A DNA stretch of 64,000 nucleotides. Origin: Apostichopus japonicus (Eukaryota; Echinodermata; Holothuroidea; Aspidochirotida; Stichopodidae). The translations under genes were made by a program, and so were the position numbers. Below the pieces are notes generated by a model. That model saw only the letters and a list, made by a program, of their open reading frames with translations. It searched no databases and was not told the DNA's origin. The DNA is taken from contig NC_092570.1 in assembly GCF_037975245.1 (NCBI RefSeq), positions 16,005,918 through 16,069,917 on the forward strand, read 5' to 3'. Shown piece by piece: positions 1 to 63,247 of this stretch. How positions within the stretch are numbered: the stretch's first letter is position 1; every line of letters starts with the position of its first letter.

Positions 1-800
1 GCCCATACTTGAATGCACCGCCAAGCTGTATTTTCATACATTCCTGTTAACATATACCTCGCCCATACTTGAATACACCGCCAAGCTGTATTCATTCCTG
101 TTCACATATACCTCGCCCATACTTGAATGCACCGCCAAGCTGTATTTTCATACAATCCTGTTAACATATACCTCGCCATACTTGAATGCACCGCCAAGCT
201 GTATTTTCATACATTCTTGTTAACATATACCTCGCCATAATTGAATACACCGCCAAGCTGTATTTTCATACAATCCTGTTAACATATACCTCGCCCATAC
301 TTGAATACACCGCCAAGCTGTATTTTCATACATTCCTGTTCACATATACCTCGCCCATACTTGAATGCACCGCCAAGCTGTATTTTCATACATTCCTGTT
401 CACATATACCTCGCCCATACTTGAATGCACCGCCAAGCTGTATTTTCATACATTCCTGTTCACATATACCTCGCCCATACTTGAATGCACCGCCAAGCTG
501 TATTTTCATACATTCCTGTTAACATATACCTCGCCCATACTTGAATACACCGCCAAGCTGTATACATTCCTGTTAACATATACCTCGCCATACTTGAATG
601 CACCGCCAAGCTGTATTTTCATACATTCTTGTTATCATATACCTCGCCCATACTTGAATACACCGCCAAGCTGTATTCATTCCTGTTCACATATACCTCG
701 CCCATACTTGAATGCACCGCCAAGCTGTATTTTCATACATTCCTGTTAACATATACCTCGCCATACTGGAATACACCGCCAAGCAGTATTTTCATACAAT
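1..800. repeat. 60-bp tandem satellite array, left-truncated by the window
   Basis: About 13 head-to-tail copies of a unit of roughly 60 bp, recognisable by CACCGCCAAGCTGTATTTTC and ACATATACCTCGCC. Copies differ by point changes (GAATGCACC or GAATACACC, TTAACAT or TTCACAT) and by small deletions near 100, 570 and 680. The array begins before base 1 and decays after about 800. Because the common unit is a multiple of three, it keeps long open frames on both strands with a repetitive peptide. These are by-products of the repeat and not genes. Confidence 0.95.
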
Positions 801-6631: not shown

Positions 6632-8454
6632 GGTCATGCTCAAGAGGCCGCATTTGAGGCTATCAAAAAGAGTCTCAGCAGCGCGCCTGTTCTCAAGTAC
6701 TTTGACCCTAAGGAAGAAACAGAAGGGCAAGGAGATGCCTCCGACAAAGGATTAGGATTTTCTCTCATGCAGAAGGGTCAACCAGTAACGTTCGCAAGTA
6801 GGGCTCTAACTCCAGCTGAAACAAGGTATTCTCAGATCGAGAAAGAACTCTTAGCTCTGATATTCGGTCTCGAGAGAAACCATCAATATACTTTTGGACG
6901 GAAAATCACACTGTGGACAGATCACAAACCCCTTGTGTCCATATCAAAGAAGCCTATCACTGTAGCTCCAAGACGACTACAGCGACTACTCCTAAGACTA
7001 TCACATTATGATGTGGACATAGTGTATAAGCCAGGACGAGAAATGTACCTGGCAGATACGCTTTCACGTGCATACCTTCAAACCAGTGACCGATCCAAGA
7101 TAGAAACAGAGACAGAGTGTATCAACATGATAGACTTTCTTCCTGTATCAAAAGCTACTTTGAAAGAGATACAAACTGCCACGACAAAAGACCACACAGG
7201 TCAAGCTCTTAGAGAACTTATCACTAATGGGTGGCCTGAAGCCAAGTCAAACCTGACACCTGGAACAGGTCCATATTTCCAAGTTCGCGATGAACTATCC
7301 TATCAAAATGGAGTGATCTTTAAAGGCCTTCGGTGTGTAATTCCAACCAGTATCAGAGGCAGTATCAAGCAGAAACTTCACCAAGCACACACAGGCATAG
7401 AAAGTACACTTAGACGTGCCCGGGATACTGTCTACTGGCCAGGGATGAACAAAGAAATAAAGGACTACATAGAGCAATGTAGTATTTGCAACTCGTACTG
7501 CATGAAACAAATCAAACAGCCTCTCATCAGTCATGACATTCCAGAACAGCCAGGATTGAAAATAGGTGTTGACATATTCACCTTGGACAATACTGATTAT
7601 CTGTGCATTGTGGATTACTTTTCAGATCTGTTTGAAGTGGAAAAGCTTACACACAAAAAGGATGCTCCTTCGGTTATCAACGTTCTCAAGAAGTACTTCG
7701 CCAGTCACGGAATTCCAGTCAAACTACAATCCGACAATGGACCACCATTCTCGTCACATGCATTTGAACAATTTGCTGCACTTTACCAATTTGATCATGT
7801 AACAAGTTCACCGTACCATGCTCAGAGCAATGGTAAAGTTGAGAATGCCATAAAAACAGCAAAAAACCTCATCAAGAAATCAAAGGCACAAAAGAAAGAC
7901 TACTATCTCAGTCTTCTTAGTTGGCGCAACACCCCAACTGAAGGACTTGATAGTTCACCGGCTCAGAGACACTACAGCAGGAGAACTAGAACATTGTTAC
8001 CAACTGCAAGCAAGCTCCTCAGACCAAAAGTAGTGAGAAACACATTGCAACGAAAAAGAAAAGAAAGGAGAAACAGCAATACTATTATAACAAAGGAGCG
8101 CAAACGCTTCCGACGCTTCAGGAAGGACAAACAGTTCGCATCCAACCTACAAACACAAAGGAGAAATGGGAAAAAGCGAAAGTCATCAGCAAAGTACGCG
8201 AACGCTCATACAAAGTCCAAACAGAAGACGGTCATGAATTTCACAGGAACAGAAAATACCTTCGCTTGTCAAAAGAACCACTCATCGAACGAAGCGAGCT
8301 GTGTTTCGAACAACTACAAACAGCAGCTACAGATGACGCGAGCCAACCCGATTCTTCAAGACAAAACACCCCATATGAAACTCCAGATCCACCAGTTCTG
8401 AGACGTAGCCAGCGTATTGTAAAACATAAAACCGGATGTCACTGTTGTGATTAG
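6632..8454 (+). pseudogene. pol: Gypsy pol remnant: RT connection, RNase H, integrase (frameshifted)
   Basis: The reading frame is open from about 6626 without a start codon at the junction; the first ATG is at 6767. In order it contains the end of reverse transcriptase (HAQEAAFEAIKKSL...APVLKYFDP), an RNase H domain (catalytic D in DASDKGLG, E in SQIEKELLAL, D in TDHKPL), a HHCC zinc finger of integrase (H and H in KLHQAHTG, C and C in EQCSICNSYC, about 7376-7502) and the integrase core with D (VDIF), D (QSDNGPPF) and E (GKVENAIK). Near 8050-8070, in a purine-rich run, homology leaves the first frame. The C-terminal integrase part continues in another frame to the stop at 8454. The first frame runs on as unrelated basic peptide to 8401. 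Gag, protease and the RT palm are missing, so the product cannot be autonomous. Whether a ribosomal shift or a simple indel is involved is not known. Confidence 0.93.
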
Positions 8455-36213: not shown

Positions 36214-39200
36214 GTGAGTGTTCAGGCCAATACCATTTGTCAAGAGTATATGTATAGCATGCCATGAGTTTTTGAAGCACTTGGTATAAGTTTTTCATCT
36301 AATGGCAAATTGCTAAATTTGTTAAGACAGGTTCTCTTCAAGATGTTGGTTTGTTGTTCAAGGCAACCTGATTAACAGAAAACATTCATTGATTGATGTC
36401 GTAATTTATTGATATTATTATCAAATTTAGTTCTATTATTTGAGGATAGATTGGGTTACGAAATGAAAGTGGTTAGATTTTTGACATGTCACTAATTTTT
36501 GACTCATTGTCAAGCTTTATCTAAAGATAACACAAAACCCAAACATCAGCTTTATGGAAAAGCAAAACTTGTCATAACTTGTGTGATTATTTCACTTAAC
36601 AAAATGGTACTGTACCGACAAGAGAAAGAAGATTCTTTAAGCCATCCAGACCAGTGCATAATGGAGGAGAGATTGGGTGACTCAGGGGGTATTACTTTAA
36701 GAATGAGTACTTCAGTTGTATTGGAAACTTAGTGTATAGATAGTACTTTAAGAATGGGTACTTAAGTCATATTGGAAATCTAGTATAGATAGTATATACT
36801 TTAAGAATGAGTACTTAAATCATATTGGAAATCTAGTATCTATAGATACTGTAGTACATGAAGAATGAGTACTTAAGTCATATTGGAAATCCAGTATAGG
36901 AATGAGTACTTAAGTCATATTGGAAATGTAGTATAGATAGTACTTTAAGAATGAGTACTTAAGTCATATTGGAAATGTAGTATAGATAGTACTTTAAGAA
37001 TGGGTACTTAAGTCGATATTGGAAATCTAGTATAGATAGTACTTTAAGAATGAGTACTTAAATCATATTGGAAATCTAGTATCTATAGATACTGTAGTAC
37101 ATGAAGAATGAGTACTTAAGTCATATTGGAAATGTAGTATAGATAGTACCTTAAGAATGAGTACTTAAGTCATATTGGAAATCTAGTATAGGAATGAGTA
37201 CTTAAGTCATATTGGAAATCTAGTATAGATAGTACTTTAAGAATGAGTACTTAAGTCATATTGGAAATGTAGTAGTACTTTAAGAATGAGTTGCTTAAGT
37301 CATATTGGAAATTAGATAGTATATACTTTAAGAATGAGTACTTAAGTCATATTGGATATCTAGTATATATAGTACATTAAGAATGAGTACTTAAGTCATA
37401 TTGGAAATCTAGTATTGAAAGTACTTCAAGAATGAGTACTTGAGTCATATCAGAAATGGGCAGGTCCAAGCTATTTGCACTGTGACGTACGGGACATTTC
37501 AGAGACTTAAATGTGTCTAAAAGTTATAAAAAATCTATTTTCCAGAAACTTTTTCAGGTTTTCACATTTGTTATTGCTGCTTCTTTATTACAAACTCTTG
37601 AAGATTTCTTACACTTGCTTTAATTAGGTCCCATCTTAATTAATGTACAGTGTGACGTACGGGACCAGAGAATTTTGTGTTTTTTTTTGCTAAAGAGCAA
37701 AGCTGAAATCGCTCTGAAATTAGGAGGGCAGTGATCAAGCTGTTATAACTAGTGAATAGCCTTACCTTCCAAGGGCTAAGCTGTAACATATTAGAAAAAA
37801 ATATGAAGCCATTCCAGTTCAGTGATTACACAAATGAAAATTGTCCTGTGACGTACGGGACATGTGACGTACGGGACAATTTGTCCAAATAAAAATTGAC
37901 TATGAAAACTCATATTTTTTTTCCTGAATATACCATAACAAGCTGATTTCTACATAAAAACATTAATTTGGATATGCCAGAACAATGTCATTGGTAATGT
38001 CATGCCATATTTCCTTCTTTCGGGGATCGAAAAGAGCAGTGACTGTACTTGTGAGATCATTCCACTACATAAAACATGGAATGCATAAAGTATAAATCTA
38101 CTCTACACATTCATCAAATACTCATAACATCAATTTTAGCTTTGTTAGACCACAAATGATCCAAGATGCAAGTTTTGGTGCAAAACTGTCTTGATATATA
38201 CTGTACAACACTGTATCATACTCCCCACTATTGACCCTGAAGTTGAAATATGATCCATCATATTCATTACATACCAAAATGTCCACAGTAACGTCCACAT
38301 AATGTCCATTACTATGAAACTAGTACAACAAAGTAAACTCTATAGACCTAATACTGGTTACCAGACCAAATACCCGTAACATCAATTCTAGCTTTGTTAG
38401 ACCACAAATGATTCAAGATGCAAGTTTTGGTGCAAAACTGTTTCGGTATATACAGTACAACACTGTATCATACTCCCCACTATTGACCCTGAAGTTGAAA
38501 TATGATCCATCCCATTCAAAACATACCATAATGTCCACAGTAACGTCCATGTAATGTCCATCTATGAAACTAGTACAACAAAGAAAACTCTATAGACCTA
38601 ATACTGGTTCCCAGACCAAATACTCATAACATCAATTCTAGCTTTGTTAGACCACAAATGATTCAAGATGCAAAGTTTTGGTGCAAAACTGTTTTGGTAT
38701 ATATACTGTACAACACTGTATCATACTCCCCACTACTGACCCTGAAGTTGAAATATGATCCATCCCATTCAAAACATATCAAAATGTCCACAGTAACGTC
38801 CATGTAATGTCCATCTATGAAACTAGTACAACAAAGAAAACTCTATAGACCTAATACTGGTTACCAGACCAAATAGTCATAACATCAATTCTAGCTTTGT
38901 TAGACCACAAATGATTCAAGATGAAAAGTTTTGGTTCAAAACTGTTTTGGTATATTGTATACTGTACAACACTGTGTCATACTCCCCACTATTAACCCTC
39001 AAGTTGAAATATGATCCATCCCATTCAAAACATATCAAAATGTCCACAGTAATGGCAATGTAATGTCCATCTATGAAATTAGTACAACAAAGAAAACTCT
39101 ATAGACCTAATACTGATTATTGAACAAACTCATGAGTGATTGTCCTCTGCAAAAATTGGGCGAGCAAAACTCTACACTTGTAACTAAAAATCTCAATGTT

Positions 39201-45200: not shown

Positions 45201-48200
45201 TGTGCAAATCTAGGACGTAGTAAGATTAATACTCATGTACTTTGTGTTTCACTGTGGCTGGCCTGAGCGGAACTAATAAAGGCACAGAGCCTTTGCAAAA
45301 AGGAAGTGGACATATATGTATATATAGCAAGCTGGTTTGGAGAGTGTTTTACAGTTTTGAGTAGTATAGTCACAGCTAGTGGAGTAACAGTCACGGTTTC
45401 GATTAGCAGTCACATATTACAGTAACAGTCACAGTTTTGAGTAATAATCACGGTGTAGAGTTAAAGTCACGTTTTCAAGTAACAGTCACGGTTTCGGGTA
45501 ACAGACATGGTTTCAAGTAACAGACATGGTTTCGAGTAACTGTCACAGTTTTGAGTAATAGTCACGGTTTAGAGTAACAGTCACTGTTTCAAGTAACCGT
45601 CACATTTTTCGAGTAACAGTCACAGTTCGAGTAACAGACATTGTTTCGAGTAACTGTAACAGTTTTGAGTAATAGTCACGGTGTAGAGAAGCAGTCGAGG
45701 CTTCAAGTAACAGTCACGGTTTCGAGTAACAGACACGTTTTCGAGTAACTGTCACAGTTTTGAGTAATAGTCATGGTGTAGAGTAGCAGTCACGGCTTCA
45801 AGTAACAGTAACGTTTTCGAGTAACAGTCATGGTTTCTAGTAACAGTCACGGTTTCGAGTAACAGACACGGTTTCTAGTAACAGTCACGGTTTCGAGTAA
45901 CAGACACGGTTACGAGTAAAAGTCACTGTTCTGAGTAATAGTCACATGGTTTAGAGAGTCAGAATCTACCTGTCCACAGAAATTGATGGTTTAGAGAATC
46001 CGAAGAGTAGACTGGCATCTAAAAAGGAAACGTAATCATCACAACTAGCCACCTTAACTAACTCAACATGAACTTGTTCAGTGATCATACAAACAACCGT
46101 CACCTAACATATTACAAGAAGTGTCAGTAGTCCTATATCTGAAAGTTGAGTCCTGTACAGATTGAGATACTAAAGAAAACTGTTCAGTTAAGTTACCAGG
46201 AAAAGTATAATTGTTAATTTAGCCCATGGATATTGCACCATAATGATGAACTAAGGCCCAAAAGTTTGAAAGATTTGCCAATTAATTGGATAGATAAAAA
46301 AAGAAAAAATTAATAAAGTAAGAAAGAGGGCTTGGATATATAGCTAGTGGCTATACAGAGCTGAACTTGTTCTCTTTATCAATCTTGTCTCTTTATTACT
46401 ATTTTCATCTCTCCTCAGATGTTCCTCCTGCTTCCATCATGACACCAATCAAATCCTCCACAACATTGTAGATTTAAATCTGGATATTAAACCAACTGAT
46501 GTTCAATCTGACCACTGTGAGGTAACCATCACTTGTAAGTAACAAATAATTTAAACAACACCCGTAATCTCTAACATTTTCATTTATACTTTGGAAACAA
46601 TGTTGAAGAATGTTTTAAATTTTACTGCATATATATACAATACAGGTTTAAATATTAATAAAGTGCTCAAATTGTTGGTAATATTCTGTCTGCCATCAGA
46701 GGGAGGAGGGAAGAGGCAGTTCCCCTTGCATTTTTTTTTTCTAGGGGAACTAAAGCCCCTCAGTAGTATATACTTTATTTTATAAAGCGTAAAATCCACA
46801 AAAGTGCTCTAAAACGCTATGTAACAGTATATAAAAAAATATATGACACAAAATATGTAGTAAAGCTGCAGACTAAAATACAATATAAATGAGTATGAAA
46901 AATAAAAAGCATGCACCTTTGAGTGTGTTGGAGTACTGCACATGAATAGAATTGAATACCCAGTTTATATATTGCAGTAATGCTGTCTAAATAGGTAGGT
47001 TTTCAGCTTTGACTTGAATGTTGTAAGACTAGAAACAGTTCTGAGTTCAGAACACATGGTTGTGGCTATGGTGTTTTATATGCAATGGTTGCTTGTGAGA
47101 ATGAGAATAGTGAAAGAAACATATAGAGAGAGAGAGAGGGGAAATCTGCAACTCTGCTGTTGAGTTTGGAAAAGTGATAAGTTGATAACCTTGAAAAGGA
47201 TCATATACCCTGCAAAATAGATGATTATTTTGGTACCTAGGACATTCCAAGTTACAGTTTTTAATATTCCGACCAGGAAGTTTGTTTGAAATTTTTGGTT
47301 CCCTGGATATCATTGATAAACTTTGTTGTAGGAATGGAAAGTTTCAGTTTAAAGAGGTCATGGTCTTGTTTTGCTGGCAAGGGCAAATCAAAGTAAGGAC
47401 TAAAAAAAAGCAAAATGTGAGAGTTTTTGGATGAAACTCTTCCAACTTTAGAGCTGTTAAATAGTTAACTACTGTAACTATGAAATAACTATAAAAAATA
47501 AAATAAATTCAGAGTTCATTTTTTGGGGCTAAAAAATGTTATCCGCTCCTCAATGTATTCAAGTAGAATATATATGGGGTTTCCCTGGTTATAATTACTC
47601 ATTTTCTTCTTATGTGAGCATGCAGCTAGGTGGATCTACAAAGTTTCAAATAATGCCCTGGTATTAAGGTAGTTAATACTGTCAAAGAAATGTGGTGGAA
47701 ATACTGTAGTCATTCAAAAGAACTCTATTATGCCCTCTAGGCGCTCCAATCTGAGGACAGAATCAACTTCGCCTTTCCGTTCAATACTTGGAGATTATAA
47801 TTTCAAATCTGGTATGATTTACATGTAGGTACCCTTCAAAATAATTTCTTCTCGCAAGGACGGTTCGGGCAAAGTGGGGGGGGGGGAAGGGACCGGGGGG
47901 AGAGGGAAACTCCCAGGCGGCAACAACTTGTTCTCCCCATTTTCCGGTAACACTTTATAAGCATCTATGTCGTTGATAAGACTCATTCGTACCGTACTTT
48001 CTACGCTTTACAATTCAGGGGATGATTGTCACAAGACGGTGTTCTCCAACTCATGGCTGAGAGAGTATTTTCCCGGTGCAGCTGACAACGCCATGACTGG
48101 TGAACAGGATATTTATCGAACCCTTTGGCAGGGAAATTACTTTAATATGCCTTCCTTTGAACTAGTCGACCTTCAAAATGACAGACCAACGCTGAAGAAA

Positions 48201-55539: not shown

Positions 55540-56432
55540 ATTTGGGCAATTCCGTAAAGTCGGACGTACATTTCGGACAGTTTGTTGATCCATATCTCAA
55601 TGGCTATATATAGGAGATTACTTTTTATTTGGGTTTTGTCTAACATCTGCCTTGTACTATTCTTGTATGGAGTTACAGTTCTTGTCCATCCAAACAAACC
55701 ACAAAAATATTGAAAAAACCTCCCTGTGACGGACGTACCCAGAGAAAGTGACTTTTTCAGATCGTAATTTTGTTTAGAAAATTTCTGTGAATTTGAATGG
55801 GATGCAATTAAAAACTACTCTACATGTCATAAAGAAGACTCTTAACTACACATATCAGTACACATGCAGTTGAAACCTTTTTCACTTCCCTGCAATATTT
55901 TCAAAAATACCCCTGTGACGGACGTACAATTTTTTGTGACGGACGTACATTTGTGAAATTATATAGTAAATGTACGTCCGTCACAAACAAAGCCACTACT
56001 TGGTTTGCCTAAAAATTAAACTTGTGACAGCTCTCCTCCCAGAGTTTCCTTTCTGAACAGCTGTAAATAATACTGCAGCATTCAACTGTGTCTAATGTGA
56101 ACAATTTAGGTAAAAGTAATAGTGGAAGGTAGGTAAAAATTCTCACAAAATGTCTGTTGCATTGAAAGTATATATTTCGCTTTAAGTTGTATGAGTGAAA
56201 CGTCACTTGAAATAATACATAAACATGAGATGCAAATTCATTTAATTCCTCAAACTGTGTTTGAAATAAACACATAGAAACACTCTTATTTAGTCCATTA
56301 AGAAAAAAAGATATTAATTAACCTGAGATATTTCAGTAACAATGCAAAGTGAAACAAAACATGAATACATCTTGAATGTAAAAGTTAGCATGAAAACTCT
56401 TGGTCCATAAAACTAATGCTAGTATCAAAGTA

Positions 56433-58604
56433 CTAAATGTTGAATGTGAATTGCCCTCTATTGCCAATTGGGACAGGATGTCCAATCCTCTTTAAAATCT
56501 GTTCTCCATAATAATAAATTTCATCAGGTTTGCCTGCAGGCCATTTCCAATTACTCCCTGACCTGTGCATTACTTTAACTTTATTCCGAGGCTCATCATC
56601 AGTGAATCCTGATATTTCACCAGGGAAGGTGTTCTGCATGTATTGGACAAGTACCCAGTCTCCTATTTGTAGGTCTGTTTTAATATTCGGATGATCTGCT
56701 GGATCCACTTGATCATTCTCTAGCTCGCTGTCACTGCTATCAGTCTCCTCATGCTTCCTTATTGGTACCTCAGTTTTGGTTAGTGAGGCAGAGGTTTCAG
56801 CAATCAGAATGTTATTTTGTCCTTTGGGCTCAACACAGTGCATTTTGTGTGTGTATGGAACTGTGACTGTGTCCTTCCAGTAACCCTCCAAACGTATCTT
56901 CTCTTCCTGGATTACACTGGCCGGAATAAAAGCTACTTTGATGTTAGGATTTCGAAGTTGGGCCACTTGATGAAATTCACTTGGGCTGGCAGCTTGTCCC
57001 TTCCCACTTCGCACATAGCGCCAAACAGATCTTTTCACTGTACCTCCCAAGCCATCCACTGCCCCCTTCCCGTGAGAAGTGGCAAAGAAATGCCACCGTA
57101 GATTAACCCCAAACTCTTCCTTCCATCGATTAAGATTGGAAAAAAGGAAGCGCTGCTTAAATTGAGAGCTGGCACCATCTGAAAAAACATCAATATGGCT
57201 GACATTTGTAAACTTGTTTTTCAAATTTGTAAATATATAAGACATGAAGGCATTCACACTCAGCTTATCATGTTGCAGCTCGTCTGATACAATGATGATG
57301 CTCTGGCTATCTTCAGCATCAATCCATGCATGGGCTGTAAATAGTGTAGCCTGCTTATGGGACCAGTGACCAGACTGTATTTCATCTTGAAAGGCCAGGG
57401 TAGCATTTTCAGAAAAATCAACCTGCAAAAGGATGTTTACACCGTTAACAGCAGCTTTGAGTTGGTCGAAATGTGTTGCCTGCTTTCTCTTTACAAATAC
57501 ATGGACAAGAAAGGCCTTCAACTGACATTTTAGTTCTTCAAATATCTCACCAGCAGTTGAAGTTATTTCCACTTTCTCTGCCCCAGTGTTGTTCTGCCAT
57601 TGGTAGTACTTGACGACGATACTGGCAATATCTGCAGATGGTGCAAATGGGTCAATTTTACCTTTGCAATCAGAGCAATCTTGGGACATACATTCTTTAG
57701 ATCCAGTGTCACAAACCATCATCTCTGTAAAAGCTGTAGTGTTGCCAGGTAGATTAATGTGGTGTGATAGAACATCTAACAAGAGCCTGATGTTCTCATG
57801 GTAGGAACATACACAAACATTGTGTGGGATTTGATCAAACGTCTTCACAAACTTTGGACGAAGCTCACAAAATTTGCTGAGGCTTACAGATGCTTTGTTT
57901 GTTTCGCAGAACAACTGATATGCTTCAGAAAGGGACATAAGCAGGTACTTGGCTTGGTGTATTGTTTTTGTTTTCTTTCCATTTTCGTCCTTCCCTCTAA
58001 CTATGACACGGTCCTTCCTACCTGGAGCCTGCCATGAAATGTCATCCTTCAAGTAGAATTCAATCACTTTTTCCTTAGTAGCATTATCGAGTGGAGGCCT
58101 TCCATTAACCACTGGTTGCTGTATGATGGCCAAACCAGCCTGTTTAGCAACCATTGCAGCCACTGCCTTTATTTTTCTTGGAGATCTCGGTAAGGAATCA
58201 CGAACCCTCTTTACTGCCTTTCCCAGTGCTTGCGCAGAGCGATACGGTGATGGTCTTTCTTGAGGTTGGTTAGAAGTATCATCATTATTAGTAGTAACAT
58301 TCCCTTTCTTTTTAGCTCTCAACCTACGGATCCGTACATTTTCCTCAACTCTGTAATATGTCCACTTTGCCTTGTTTTTCTTCATTACCTCCCTCTTCTT
58401 CTTCTTCCTTATCCTATCTTTCTCTAGGAGTGCTTTCCATTTAGCACTGTCTTTTTTCAATAGTTCCCGACGTTGCCTCTGTCTCTCTTTTGCTGCAGGC
58501 ATTTTGTTCTGTTGAAAATATTTGGAAATTGTAGTCATTTTACATATGGCACTTTCTAAATCTTTATATCTGATCTTAAACACCTGGTAAATTGCTATTT
58601 CCAT
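56433..58604 (-). CDS. putative DDD transposase of element B (Sola-like), 723 aa, intact
   Basis: No frameshift or internal stop. Methionine 35 (MPAAKERQRQRRELLK) is a likelier start than methionine 1, because the basic, K/R-rich coiled segment (35-105) begins there. Then follow a linker, a conserved helical region (about 165-260), a Cys/His cluster (C264, C266, H269, C298, C305, C310, C313) that could bind zinc, and a core with three aspartates in RNase-H-like contexts: D396 (LLQVDFSENATL), D472 or D476 (IDVFSDGASSQFKQ) and D517 (SHGKGAVDGLGG). The C-terminus (645-708) has a small beta-rich module (GDWVLVQYMQNTFPGEISG... WKWP), resembling a tudor/SH3-type chromatin reader. Recognition as a transposase rests on the DDD motifs plus its position inside a bounded element. 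Superfamily is an inference. Confidence 0.82.
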   Translation of the reverse strand: MEIAIYQVFKIRYKDLESAICKMTTISKYFQQNKMPAAKERQRQRRELLKKDSAKWKALLEKDRIRKKKKREVMKKNKAKWTYYRVEENVRIRRLRAKKKGNVTTNNDDTSNQPQERPSPYRSAQALGKAVKRVRDSLPRSPRKIKAVAAMVAKQAGLAIIQQPVVNGRPPLDNATKEKVIEFYLKDDISWQAPGRKDRVIVRGKDENGKKTKTIHQAKYLLMSLSEAYQLFCETNKASVSLSKFCELRPKFVKTFDQIPHNVCVCSYHENIRLLLDVLSHHINLPGNTTAFTEMMVCDTGSKECMSQDCSDCKGKIDPFAPSADIASIVVKYYQWQNNTGAEKVEITSTAGEIFEELKCQLKAFLVHVFVKRKQATHFDQLKAAVNGVNILLQVDFSENATLAFQDEIQSGHWSHKQATLFTAHAWIDAEDSQSIIIVSDELQHDKLSVNAFMSYIFTNLKNKFTNVSHIDVFSDGASSQFKQRFLFSNLNRWKEEFGVNLRWHFFATSHGKGAVDGLGGTVKRSVWRYVRSGKGQAASPSEFHQVAQLRNPNIKVAFIPASVIQEEKIRLEGYWKDTVTVPYTHKMHCVEPKGQNNILIAETSASLTKTEVPIRKHEETDSSDSELENDQVDPADHPNIKTDLQIGDWVLVQYMQNTFPGEISGFTDDEPRNKVKVMHRSGSNWKWPAGKPDEIYYYGEQILKRIGHPVPIGNRGQFTFNI

Positions 58605-59208
58605 TGAAAGAATAAAACAAGAGAAGAAGTAAAGTCCAAAGTAGGGTTAAAGCACAATGCAATAACCCTACATCAGAGTGGTATATATATCTGTGAAGGA
58701 AAAGACACAATTTACCTATATTTGATGTTGTTTTCATTTCACAACACTCACTATCCAGTGGTTGACCTGTACTACAATCCCCACCCCCTCACCACACAAG
58801 GAATTGTTTACATTTTCCTACAGTGATTATAGCAGATACTTCTATATTGTGTACATATAATGAAAGTGGCCTACAGTGTTATGAGAGTATATTAGGCCTA
58901 GTCGGACCTAAATTAAAGGCCATTCTCTCACCACAAATCTGCCAGGCCTCTGTGATAATGGTGAGCTCATTTTAAGGTTTTGTGCATCACTTCAAACAAT
59001 ACAGAATTTAGTTGGCCAGAAAGATATGTCTTTATTAACAGGATATGAGCACCAAACCAACTTTCTCCTCTTTCCTTCACACCCAAGTTTAATTCATTAA
59101 ATTTAATTATTTACTTACATGTACTGCAGGCTTCTTTATGGATGATAATTAGCACTTCTCAGCAAACAAGAATTGTTTTCAGTTCAGTTGTGTGATGCAG
59201 TTGACTTG

Positions 59209-59350
59209 CATTGCTTCAGGAGCTCTTACATGAAAGTTTCATATTGTAGCCAATAACATACTGTACAGAACATGTGCATTGCATTGCTTCAGGAGCTCTT
59301 AGATGAAAGTTTCACATTGTAGCCAATAACATACTGTACTGTACAGTACA
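59209..59350. repeat. 73-bp tandem duplication inside element B
   Basis: CATTGCTTCAGGAGCTCTTA starts at 59209 and 59282. The second copy is extended by an extra CTGTACAGTA-type palindrome. It lies between the transposase start and the right subterminal motif array, where the promoter should be. Confidence 0.9.
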
Positions 59351-60164
59351 TGTGGTTAAACACCATACATGTGGTTTCTTTGATATGCAAATCTTGTCAA
59401 GTGCCAACCAATGACAGAAGTTATGGTAGTTGGTAGTTGACACTTACATGCACACCATACACTTCTACCTTTATACTAATGGAACAACCACGAAACTACC
59501 TAATGTCTATGCAAATGGAACATTCCATTACAATCAGAGGTAATGTAGTGCTTAGTATTGTGTAACAAAAAAAAAGTTATGTGACGGACGTACGCGTGAC
59601 GGACGTACGTGACGGACGTACAAAAATATGTACGTCTGTCACAGCAATTTCTGCAAAAATAAAATCCTAGGGATTAAAGGCACATTATGTAGTTATTGAG
59701 TGTTCAAAATGTGCATTGAATTGTAGATGTCTTGAAATCTGGGTACTTCCTTCTGTAGGAAATTTTTAAAAATGTGATTTTTCTGTGACGGACGTACACA
59801 TGACAATTTACATTTGTAAAAAAAGTTATTCTCAGAAAACTGAAAATCCCTGCAACTTTATCTGTTTGTAAATTGAATCTATATATTATATCACTTTAGG
59901 AAATCCAAGAATATTTATTCCTCTGGAGTTACACTGGCAAAAATAGGCATTTTGTTTTGGGGTGATTTTTTTTAAGCAAATTTGAGATTTTTTCGGTTGA
60001 CTAATACATACCTTAATCTGCCTGAAAACAATGTGTTCTATGAAAATTAGCTACATATTATGAAACTCCATAGTTTTAGCTTTCATCTGATACCCTACAT
60101 GTAATGATTCAACGTTTTTTAATTTTTGGTGAAAAGGTTTACTAGTTTACGGAACTGCCCATTT

Positions 60165-62221: not shown

Positions 62222-62422
62222 AGACTAGCCATAGCTAGTCTTTAGCTAGTCTAGCTATAGCTAGTCTTTAGCTAGACTAGCTATAGCTAGTCTTTAGCTA
62301 GTCTAGCTATAGCTAGTCTTTAGCTAGACTAGCTATAGCTAGTCTTTAGCTAGTCTAGCTATAGCTAGTCTTTAGCTAGACTAGCTATAGCTAGTCTTTA
62401 GCTAGTCTAGCTATAGCTAGTC
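62222..62422. repeat. tandem repeat of self-complementary CTAGCTATAGCTAG units
   Basis: About eight units of 25 to 26 bp (AGCTATAGCTAGTCTTTAGC) alternate between CTAGTCTAG and CTAGACTAG junctions, giving a higher-order period near 51. AGCTATAGCT and CTAG words make each unit palindromic, so the whole array could fold into cruciform or hairpin structures. Confidence 0.95.
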
Positions 62423-63247
62423 TTTCACATATATCTTATACTCATGTTTATATCTGTTTTATATTGTTCTGTCGTGTTGGTTTTTAGGTTCTAACTTCAA
62501 TTGGAATTATCACTCTATAGCATTCAAATTGTAGATTTTGAAGTCAATCAGTTTAATCGCTTTACGCTTCACCAGTACTTCTAATAGTTTTTTGATCTCA
62601 TATTCCTGTATATTTCTGTAGATGGTACATGTATTTACTGTTTTTCTAATTACTGTTTTTTGGCATTGTATTTTCTAGATTGTTTGTAAAGCGCACAGAT
62701 GCATCGCGCGTAGTGCGCTATATATATAAGATTTTATTTACATTATACGGTAGCTGTGAAATAGCATATAGACTTTTTTAACTATCATGTAACGGCGACT
62801 TGTTCTTAAATCTCTTAACGCCTAGGTTCTAAGTCATATTGTCAGCCTCCATATTTTAGGGACATAATTCAAATGGAACAATTCATGGAACAATTCATTC
62901 CTAGCGGAAGTAAAGGAAATACCAAGCGAATTTACATGACCATATGTAACGTTGATATGAAAATGTTTGCACAAAATTTGAAATTCTTGATGCAAATGGC
63001 CCTGATGAAACCATATTAGAATTTTGTTCTAAAAAAAATTGCGAGGCCACAAGCTTGCTTTAAAATGGTAAAAGGTAACCTTACTATTAAGTAAAAGAAT
63101 AACGGGATCATCGGCCGGCATATTTTATAATCTTAATATGTTGATATTTAATCGAGATATATACATTTAATATCCATGTTGTTCAATACTCCTAGTGCTA
63201 ATAATCGAGCTGTCACAATAGAAAACAAATATAGACTTTAGTGGACA
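62423..63247. other. unassigned AT-rich stretch
   Basis: No coding or RNA feature is recognised. A short GCGCGTAGTGCGC inverted word is at about 62706-62718. Confidence 0.45.

What the first reader, a model, noticed from the sequence alone, without database searches (positions are those of the whole stretch)
55544..60160. Intact, bounded DNA transposon with an unplaced DDD protein and subterminal TGTGACGGACGTACA arrays
Both inverted ends (GGGCARTTCCGTAAA), a 4-bp ATTT duplication, and an uninterrupted 723-aa protein with three aspartates in conserved-looking contexts (D396, D476, D517), a Cys/His cluster and a tudor-like C-terminus are all present. Ten copies of a 14-15-bp motif cluster within about 440 bp of the left end and 580 bp of the right end. 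That layout suggests an array of transposase-binding sites. It resembles Sola by duplication length and terminal G bases, but I could not confirm membership. It looks recently active.
Basis: partly seen in the sequence, partly recalled or inferred. Interest (0 to 1): 0.85.

Follow-up and report, generated by a model that had tools for sequence, protein, structure and literature searches.

The report
Transposon with a conserved end-site ruler

Summary
Observation confirmed. Window 55544-60160 is a bounded 4617-bp DNA transposon with short imperfect TIRs, an ATTT duplication and an intact ORF. Its own genome holds at least 39 more left ends and 39 more right ends. Of 21 elements read at both junctions (window included), 19 have exact 4-bp duplications of varied sequence; one copy sits in a tandem repeat whose intact units show the empty site. 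D396, D476 and D517 are invariant in 8 of 8 aligned own-genome proteins and in a relative (49-52% identity) from another record. The array is more than a cluster: in eight elements of five subfamilies, each with its own 14-bp motif, sites fall at near-fixed distances from the ends (one end about 13, 182-193, 370-390, 389-404 bp; the other about 360-372 and 518-580 bp), while the DNA between them is largely unalignable between subfamilies. A left end predicted from this ruler lay 2 bp from the prediction. Most likely these are transposase sites of an asymmetric, ordered transpososome; binding is inferred. General features fit Sola, but homology to Sola transposases could not be tested and no fold could be predicted. 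Recent activity is supported for the copy family, not for this copy.

The parts
55540..55543 (.). 4-bp target site duplication ATTT, left
55544..60160 (.). whole element, 4617 bp
   Evidence: ends shared with copies
55544..55558 (+). left terminal inverted repeat GGGCAATTCCGTAAA
55557..55570 (+). site A1, 13 bp from left end (degenerate, 3 mismatches)
55726..55739 (+). site A2, 182 bp from left end
55915..55928 (+). site A3, 371 bp from left end
55936..55949 (+). site A4, 392 bp from left end
55971..55984 (-). extra inverted site, 427 bp from left end; no counterpart in the other subfamilies
56433..58604 (-). ORF of the putative DDD transposase, 723 codons; probable start M35 (58500-58502)
59581..59594 (+). 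type B site, 566 bp from right end
59596..59609 (+). type B site, 551 bp from right end
59609..59622 (+). type B site, 538 bp from right end
59629..59642 (-). type B site, 518 bp from right end, inverted
59785..59798 (+). site B1, 362 bp from right end
60146..60160 (-). right terminal inverted repeat GGGCAGTTCCGTAAA (read on the minus strand)
60161..60164 (.). 4-bp target site duplication ATTT, right

Best explanation
An autonomous-type cut-and-paste DNA transposon with a putative DDD transposase and 4-bp target duplication. Shown: exact ends, 4-bp duplications, one clean empty site, ends shared with many gene-less copies, invariant D396/D476/D517, and subfamily-specific 14-bp sites at near-fixed distances from two differently built ends (A: about 13, 182-193, 370-390, 389-404 bp; B: about 360-372 and 518-580 bp). 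Inferred: the sites are bound by the transposase itself; several protomers on each end contact each other across spacers of roughly 170-197 bp and bring one A end and one B end together; an RNase H-type core then cuts at the GGGYNNTTCC tips and joins them to target DNA with a 4-bp stagger. The different A and B layouts would serve as a check that a proper pair of ends has been joined.
For: 4-bp duplications in 19 of 21 elements against 4.2% for shuffled partners; empty site at C2:963252, three tandem units matching 160 of 160 joined bases at 98.1-98.8% without gaps; left and right ends shared with 39 further places each. Candidate catalytic residues invariant in 8 of 8 proteins and in L069. 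Site offsets agree among eight elements of five subfamilies; with one element per subfamily no placement in 20000 random trials and no rigid shift in 20000 reaches the observed agreement. Left end of the L008 element predicted and found 2 bp away with the predicted AGTT duplication and a site at 13 bp. The motif changes with the subfamily, and site A1 lies 12-13 bp from the tip in each element. Between window and copies the sites differ less than the filler: 2 of 139 against 89 of 1050, Fisher p 0.0011.
Against: L022, a relative with about 730-bp TIRs, has no such array, so the array is not needed by every member. L020 lacks some sites (A2, and all but one B site). L075 has its B sites 8 bp further in than its close relative L008. 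Window and L069 keep some in-register similarity between sites, so part of their agreement is plain descent. In L021 the A end is at the gene's 5' side, in the others at the 3' side.
Confidence: 0.75

Rival explanations
1. The sites bind a host factor or regulate transcription of the transposase gene, and are not transposase sites.
For: No binding data exist; L022 does without an array; half-sites resembling GTNAC could suit many regulators.
Against: Sites stand at both ends, the first 12-13 bp from the tip; the motif differs between transposase subfamilies; gene-less copies keep them with fewer changes than the filler.
Confidence: 0.15
2. The shared offsets are only left from common descent and carry no function.
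For: Window and L069 show weak in-register similarity between sites; L008/L075 and L023/L076/L020 are close pairs or trios and count once each.
Against: Between subfamilies the best ungapped identity of the end regions is 0.32-0.36, mostly at scattered offsets, so the filler has turned over while the spacing stayed; site sequence changed too; sites vary less than filler within the window's family.
Confidence: 0.1
3. The transposase belongs to a superfamily not yet named rather than to Sola.
For: No meaningful match in Pfam, NCBIfam or PDB sequences; in PHROGs one unnamed family at E 0.0029 for 1 of 8 proteins. Only 3 of 19 duplications fit the AWWT pattern of the amoebozoan Sola2 elements in PMC3627910. 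Pfam was not checked for holding a Sola model, so its silence is weak evidence.
Against: DDD, 4-bp duplication, size, and TIRs from 15 bp to about 730 bp within one family fit the description of Sola in PMC10741241.
Confidence: 0.3
4. A host gene in repeated DNA that is not mobile.
For: Only one intact copy of this gene was found.
Against: Duplications, shared exact ends and an empty site.
Confidence: 0.02

Closest known systems
Sola superfamily (Sola1/2/3)
   Same: DDD transposase, 4-bp duplication, mostly 2-9 kb, very variable termini and TIRs of 11-1124 bp (PMC10741241, passage)
   Different: Protein homology not tested; only 3 of 19 duplications are AWWT as in the Sola2 elements of PMC3627910; no spaced array is mentioned in the Sola passages seen
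Sleeping Beauty IR/DR ends (Tc1/mariner)
   Same: Several transposase sites per end, inner and outer, needed for ordered assembly (PMC7827188, passages)
   Different: Two sites in TIRs of about 220 bp; target TA instead of a 4-bp duplication
Hermes (hAT)
   Same: Short TIR and asymmetric subterminal repeats within ends of about 450 bp; phasing of the repeats near the tip matters (PMC10368747, passages)
   Different: 8-bp target sites; 4-base AAGT repeats concentrated near the tips, without steps of about 180 bp
P element
   Same: Spacing between TIR and transposase site differs between the two ends (PMC7776569, passages)
   Different: 8-bp duplication; 10-bp site 9 or 21 bp from a 31-bp TIR
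Type I-F CAST (Tn7-like) ends
   Same: Differently built ends with several transposase sites whose spacing matters with about 10-bp periodicity, bridged by a DNA-bending host protein (PMC10201428, passages)
   Different: Bacterial, several genes; no relation by sequence claimed

Membership tests
Sola | 4-bp target duplication | tested here: met
   19 of 21 elements; also L021 AAAT, L023 ATAT, L008 AGTT, L075 AAAG, L076 ATAT, L022 ATCT; not in L069
Sola | DDD transposase | tested here: inconclusive
   Three aspartates invariant in 8 of 8 proteins and L069; catalytic role not shown
Sola | TIR 11-1124 bp, mostly 2-9 kb | tested here: met
   15-bp TIR and 4617 bp in the window; TIR about 730 bp in L022
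Sola | AWWT duplication as in the Sola2 elements of PMC3627910 | tested here: not met
   3 of 19 duplications fit; whether this defines Sola2 at large was not seen
Sola | Sequence homology to Sola transposases | not testable with these tools
   No Sola sequences or profiles held; the two key papers are not held
Kolobok | TTAA duplication (KolobokP: 3-5 bp) | tested here: not met
   0 of 19 duplications are TTAA; definition from PMC9587614 passages
hAT, P, MuDR, Kolobok, Dada | C/DxxH between second and last catalytic residue | tested here: not met
   The residue three before the invariant H511 is A or G in 8 of 8; definition from PMC9587614
piggyBac | TTAA target | tested here: not met
   Varied duplications
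Tc1/mariner | TA duplication | tested here: not met
   4-bp duplications
Ginger | Gypsy-type integrase domain (recalled to be covered by Pfam) | tested here: not met
   No Pfam integrase match at E up to 10 for the window and up to 1 for 8 proteins
Any RNase H-fold transposase | RNase H fold | not testable with these tools

The most novel reading that the evidence does not exclude
A conserved end code of a eukaryotic transposon: transposase sites set in nucleosome-repeat-like steps of about 170-197 bp, in two different layouts at the two ends, kept while site sequence and filler changed, with spacing possibly changing by whole helical turns. It would mean that the transpososome is built over nucleosomes or long loops, in a transposase family that may lie outside the named superfamilies.
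Probability: 0.3. Interest if true: 0.82.

Novelty: new variant of a known kind. Interest (0 to 1): 0.62.

Why it matters
If site positions are kept while both the site sequence and the DNA between sites change, the sequence alone reveals the geometry of the enzyme-DNA complex. It turns 'subterminal repeats' into testable distances and a rule for finding ends (one end was predicted before its sequence was read). If the steps reflect nucleosomes, end recognition would be tied to chromatin. An intact gene with mapped ends and many gene-less copies is also a practical starting point for an excision assay.

Tried and rejected
Searches that found no relative: viral contigs twice (26 and 7 pattern matches, none confirmed), phages, plasmids, PDB sequences, Pfam, NCBIfam. 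PHROGs gave one unnamed family at E 0.0029 for 1 of 8 proteins. The prokaryote genome collection gave one locus, L069, from a record titled 'MAG: bacterium isolate Cli_8', and one match in that 2.2-Mb MAG. I take it for eukaryotic contamination because the 4028-bp contig is nearly all element; this was not tested.

Helical phasing: vector strength 0.74 at 10.5 bp over 10 spacings but 0.84 at 10.0 bp, and the values are not independent; kept as a hint. A strict half-site form GTNAC-N4-GTNAC fits L021, L020 and L023 but has no hit in window, L069 or L022. The target preference around the duplication comes from 19 sites without a background control. A text search for the terminal sequences held 142 papers; the 25 listed have titles on other subjects and were not opened. 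No pair of ends with a matching duplication was found in L007, L009, L010, L011, L013, L015, L016, L017, L019, L024 or L074; L019 and L024 hold single terminus-like sequences.

Rows left out before counts: of 39 further left-end and 39 further right-end places, 20 copies were read at both junctions, chosen because one or both ends were already held or both were in the lists, before their duplications were seen. The two without a 4-bp match are C16:41988045 and C3:24794944. One search tested 19 joined sites (18 copies with a matching duplication and the window) against held loci only: 9 spanning hits, of which 3 are the clean empty sites of C2:963252 and 4 are partial hits of the same copy; L031 gave one at 86.6% and L055 one at 74.2%, each with 6 gaps; the other 16 sites, the window among them, gave none. 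The permutation used 5 of the 8 elements, one per subfamily.
Full report
What is there. At 55544-60160 lies a 4617-bp element ending in GGGCAATTCCGTAAA and, inverted, GGGCAGTTCCGTAAA, with ATTT on both sides. An uninterrupted frame of 723 codons runs on the minus strand at 56433-58604. The ORF of a relative starts at the residue matching M35, so the protein is probably 689 aa.

It is a mobile element. The left 597 bp found 40 places in the own genome, itself included; 33 start at base 1, six at bases 2-9 and one at base 30 of the query. The right 621 bp found 40 main places, itself included; 37 reach the last base. Both lists are lower bounds. Many pairs lie about 3 kb apart. Two longer copies fetched (C12:34234752 and C22:19695563) have no match to the protein at E 1e-3. 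The 11 left and 11 right ends compared are 98.2% and 96.7% alike by the median, and 89.0-89.9% and 93.0-96.4% like the window. Twenty copies were read at both junctions; with the window, 19 of 21 have an exact duplication of at least 4 bp (18 of exactly 4, one of 6 in an AT run), while partners shuffled among elements match at 4 bp in 4.2%. The duplicated bases vary (AGAT, TGTT, CTTT, TGGT, AAAT, TATG and others). One copy (C2:963252, ACTG) sits in a tandem repeat: three intact units in its right flank match the joined flanks over 160 of 160 bases without gaps at 98.1-98.8%, which is the empty site. For the window insertion itself no empty site was found in the loci held. The other long copy found with the coding region, on C14, is 89.5% like the window over 2085 bp of DNA and has many stops.

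The protein. No Pfam, NCBIfam or PDB sequence match is meaningful; PHROGs gave one unnamed family for 1 of 8 proteins. The genome encodes a large, divergent family: 64 matches with the window protein, 66 with the L021 protein. In an alignment of 8 members, the seven others 21-29% identical to the window, D396, D476, D517, H511-G-K-G, G518, C264, C266, C298, C305, C310 and H589 are among the invariant columns. By eye the blocks follow the strand-and-helix order of an RNase H-type core (inference). No structure could be predicted. [quoted passage not shown]

Relatives with complete ends. L021 (C11, 31% protein identity): AAAT|GGGCTATTCC ... GGAATGGCCC|AAAT. L023 (C13) has GGGCAATTCC ends and ATAT; L020 (C6), about 91% like it where they align, lies in an AT repeat. 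L076 (C2): ATAT, and 91-97% like L023 over the aligned stretches. L008 with L073 (C13): AGTT. L075 (C11): AAAG, 93-96% like L008 over the main aligned stretches. L022 (C2): ATCT|GGGTCATTCC with TIRs of about 730 bp and no motif array. L069, from a record titled bacterial MAG, is a 3536-bp element with 49-52% protein identity whose flanking bases differ (AAAT and TTCT). The common tip is GGGYNNTTCC, save for one end of L020 (GGTCAATTCC).

The ruler. Each subfamily has its own 14-bp motif: window GTGACGGACGTACA, L069 GTGTTGGACGTACA, L021 GTGACTTACGTGAC, L020/L023/L076 GTAACGTGAGTAAC, L008/L075 GTTACAGTGTGACA. Counted from the nearest end with up to 3 mismatches, end A has: window 13, 182, 371, 392, 427; L069 13, 182, 370, 391; L021 12, 192, 380, 402; L023 and L076 13, 191, 379, 394; L008 and L075 13, 193, 390, 404; L020 13, 374, 389. 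End B has: window 362, 518, 538, 551, 566; L069 363, 519, 540, 554; L021 361, 528, 542, 566; L023 and L076 360, 525, 542, 562; L008 364, 530, 550, 572; L075 372, 538, 558, 580; L020 363 only. In the six elements scanned for it, 0 hits lie more than 800 bp from both ends. With one element per subfamily (window, L069, L021, L023, L008), the best of 20000 random placements is 13.35 for A and 13.33 for B against observed 5.77 and 4.87 (mean capped distance to the nearest site of another element), and 0 of 20000 rigid shifts of whole arrays reach the observed value. An earlier run with 4 elements had 2 of 20000 rigid shifts for A and 0 for B. Between these five the best ungapped identity of the end regions is 0.32-0.36. 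Weak in-register similarity remains between window and L069, so for that pair descent explains part of the agreement.

A prediction. L008 was not used in making the grid. It showed a right end with a B-type array and three inner A-type sites. From these I wrote down a left end at about C13:19909823, a GGGYNNTTCC tip, the duplication AGTT and a site at about 13 (written in the same turn as the fetch and before the sequence was read). The end is at 19909821 with GGGCAATTCC, AGTT and a site at 13. The sites at 193, 390 and 404 had been seen already; 390 is 10 bp further in than I had expected from L021.

Selection on the sites. Between the window and the consensus of the 11 copies at each end, site positions differ at 2 of 139 and filler positions at 89 of 1050 (Fisher p 0.0011); within copies 10 of 1529 against 226 of 11525. 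The copies are related, so the p values are a guide only.

How it most likely works. Shown: ends, duplications, the copies, conserved candidate catalytic residues and the ruler. Inferred: the transposase binds the motif, several protomers line each end, one A and one B end pair, and the core cuts at the tips and joins with a 4-bp stagger. Spacings of 169-180 bp (A1 to A2) and 188-197 bp (A2 to A3) resemble a nucleosome repeat; differences near 10 bp between subfamilies hint at whole helical turns, but the statistic is weak. Designs that work in a comparable way: Sleeping Beauty with inner and outer repeats (PMC7827188), Hermes with asymmetric subterminal repeats (PMC10368747), the P element with unequal end spacing (PMC7776569), and CAST ends with 10-bp periodic spacing and a bending protein between sites (PMC10201428). 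Of these papers I saw passages.

Where it belongs. Sola is described as DDD, with 4-bp duplications, mostly 2-9 kb, with very variable termini and TIRs of 11-1124 bp (PMC10741241, passage). The element and its relatives fit that. The Sola2 elements of PMC3627910 have AWWT duplications; 3 of 19 here do. The defining test, similarity to Sola transposases, could not be run. I call it Sola-like, membership open. In the Sola passages seen and the listings I saw no two-layout spaced array described for Sola; most subscription papers are not in that library.

Verdict. The new part is the conserved, asymmetric placement of the sites.

Noticed in passing
window 6767-8401 (+): A 544-aa ORF that looks (by recalled motifs, no search made) like the RNase H and integrase part of a Gypsy-type retrotransposon.
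   Followed up: no
window 1-798, 36689-37458, 38115-39119, 45382-45945, 62225-62425: Several long tandem repeats, periods 60, about 49, 253, 19 and 26 bp.
   Followed up: no
window 59206-59345: Inside the element, a 67-bp direct repeat at 94% identity, 73 bp apart, of unknown role.
   Followed up: no
L022 1951-6563 (G000:C2): A relative with TIRs of about 730 bp, ATCT duplication and no motif array: a different solution of the ends in the same protein family.
   Followed up: partly
L021 (G000:C11): The gene lies the other way round relative to end types A and B than in the other seven elements.
   Followed up: no
L011/L012, L013/L014, L015/L018 (G000): Near-identical pairs carrying family proteins (frames of 818-866 aa; in L018 split by a stop), alike over most or all of the 7 kb fetched (99.5%, 96-99%, 97.3%); their ends were not found.
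   Followed up: partly
L069 (JAAEPJ010000558.1): A full-length relative of 49-52% protein identity in a contig of a record titled bacterial MAG; probable eukaryotic contamination, not tested.
   Followed up: partly
G000 junctions: Targets seem to share a partly palindromic setting outside the duplication, T-rich before and GTNAAA-like after; 19 sites, no background control.
   Followed up: partly
G000:C17 about 6.0-9.5 Mb and C12:28954341-28981254: Fragments of the C-terminal region of an L021-like protein cluster: 14 on C17 and 6 in one array on C12.
   Followed up: no
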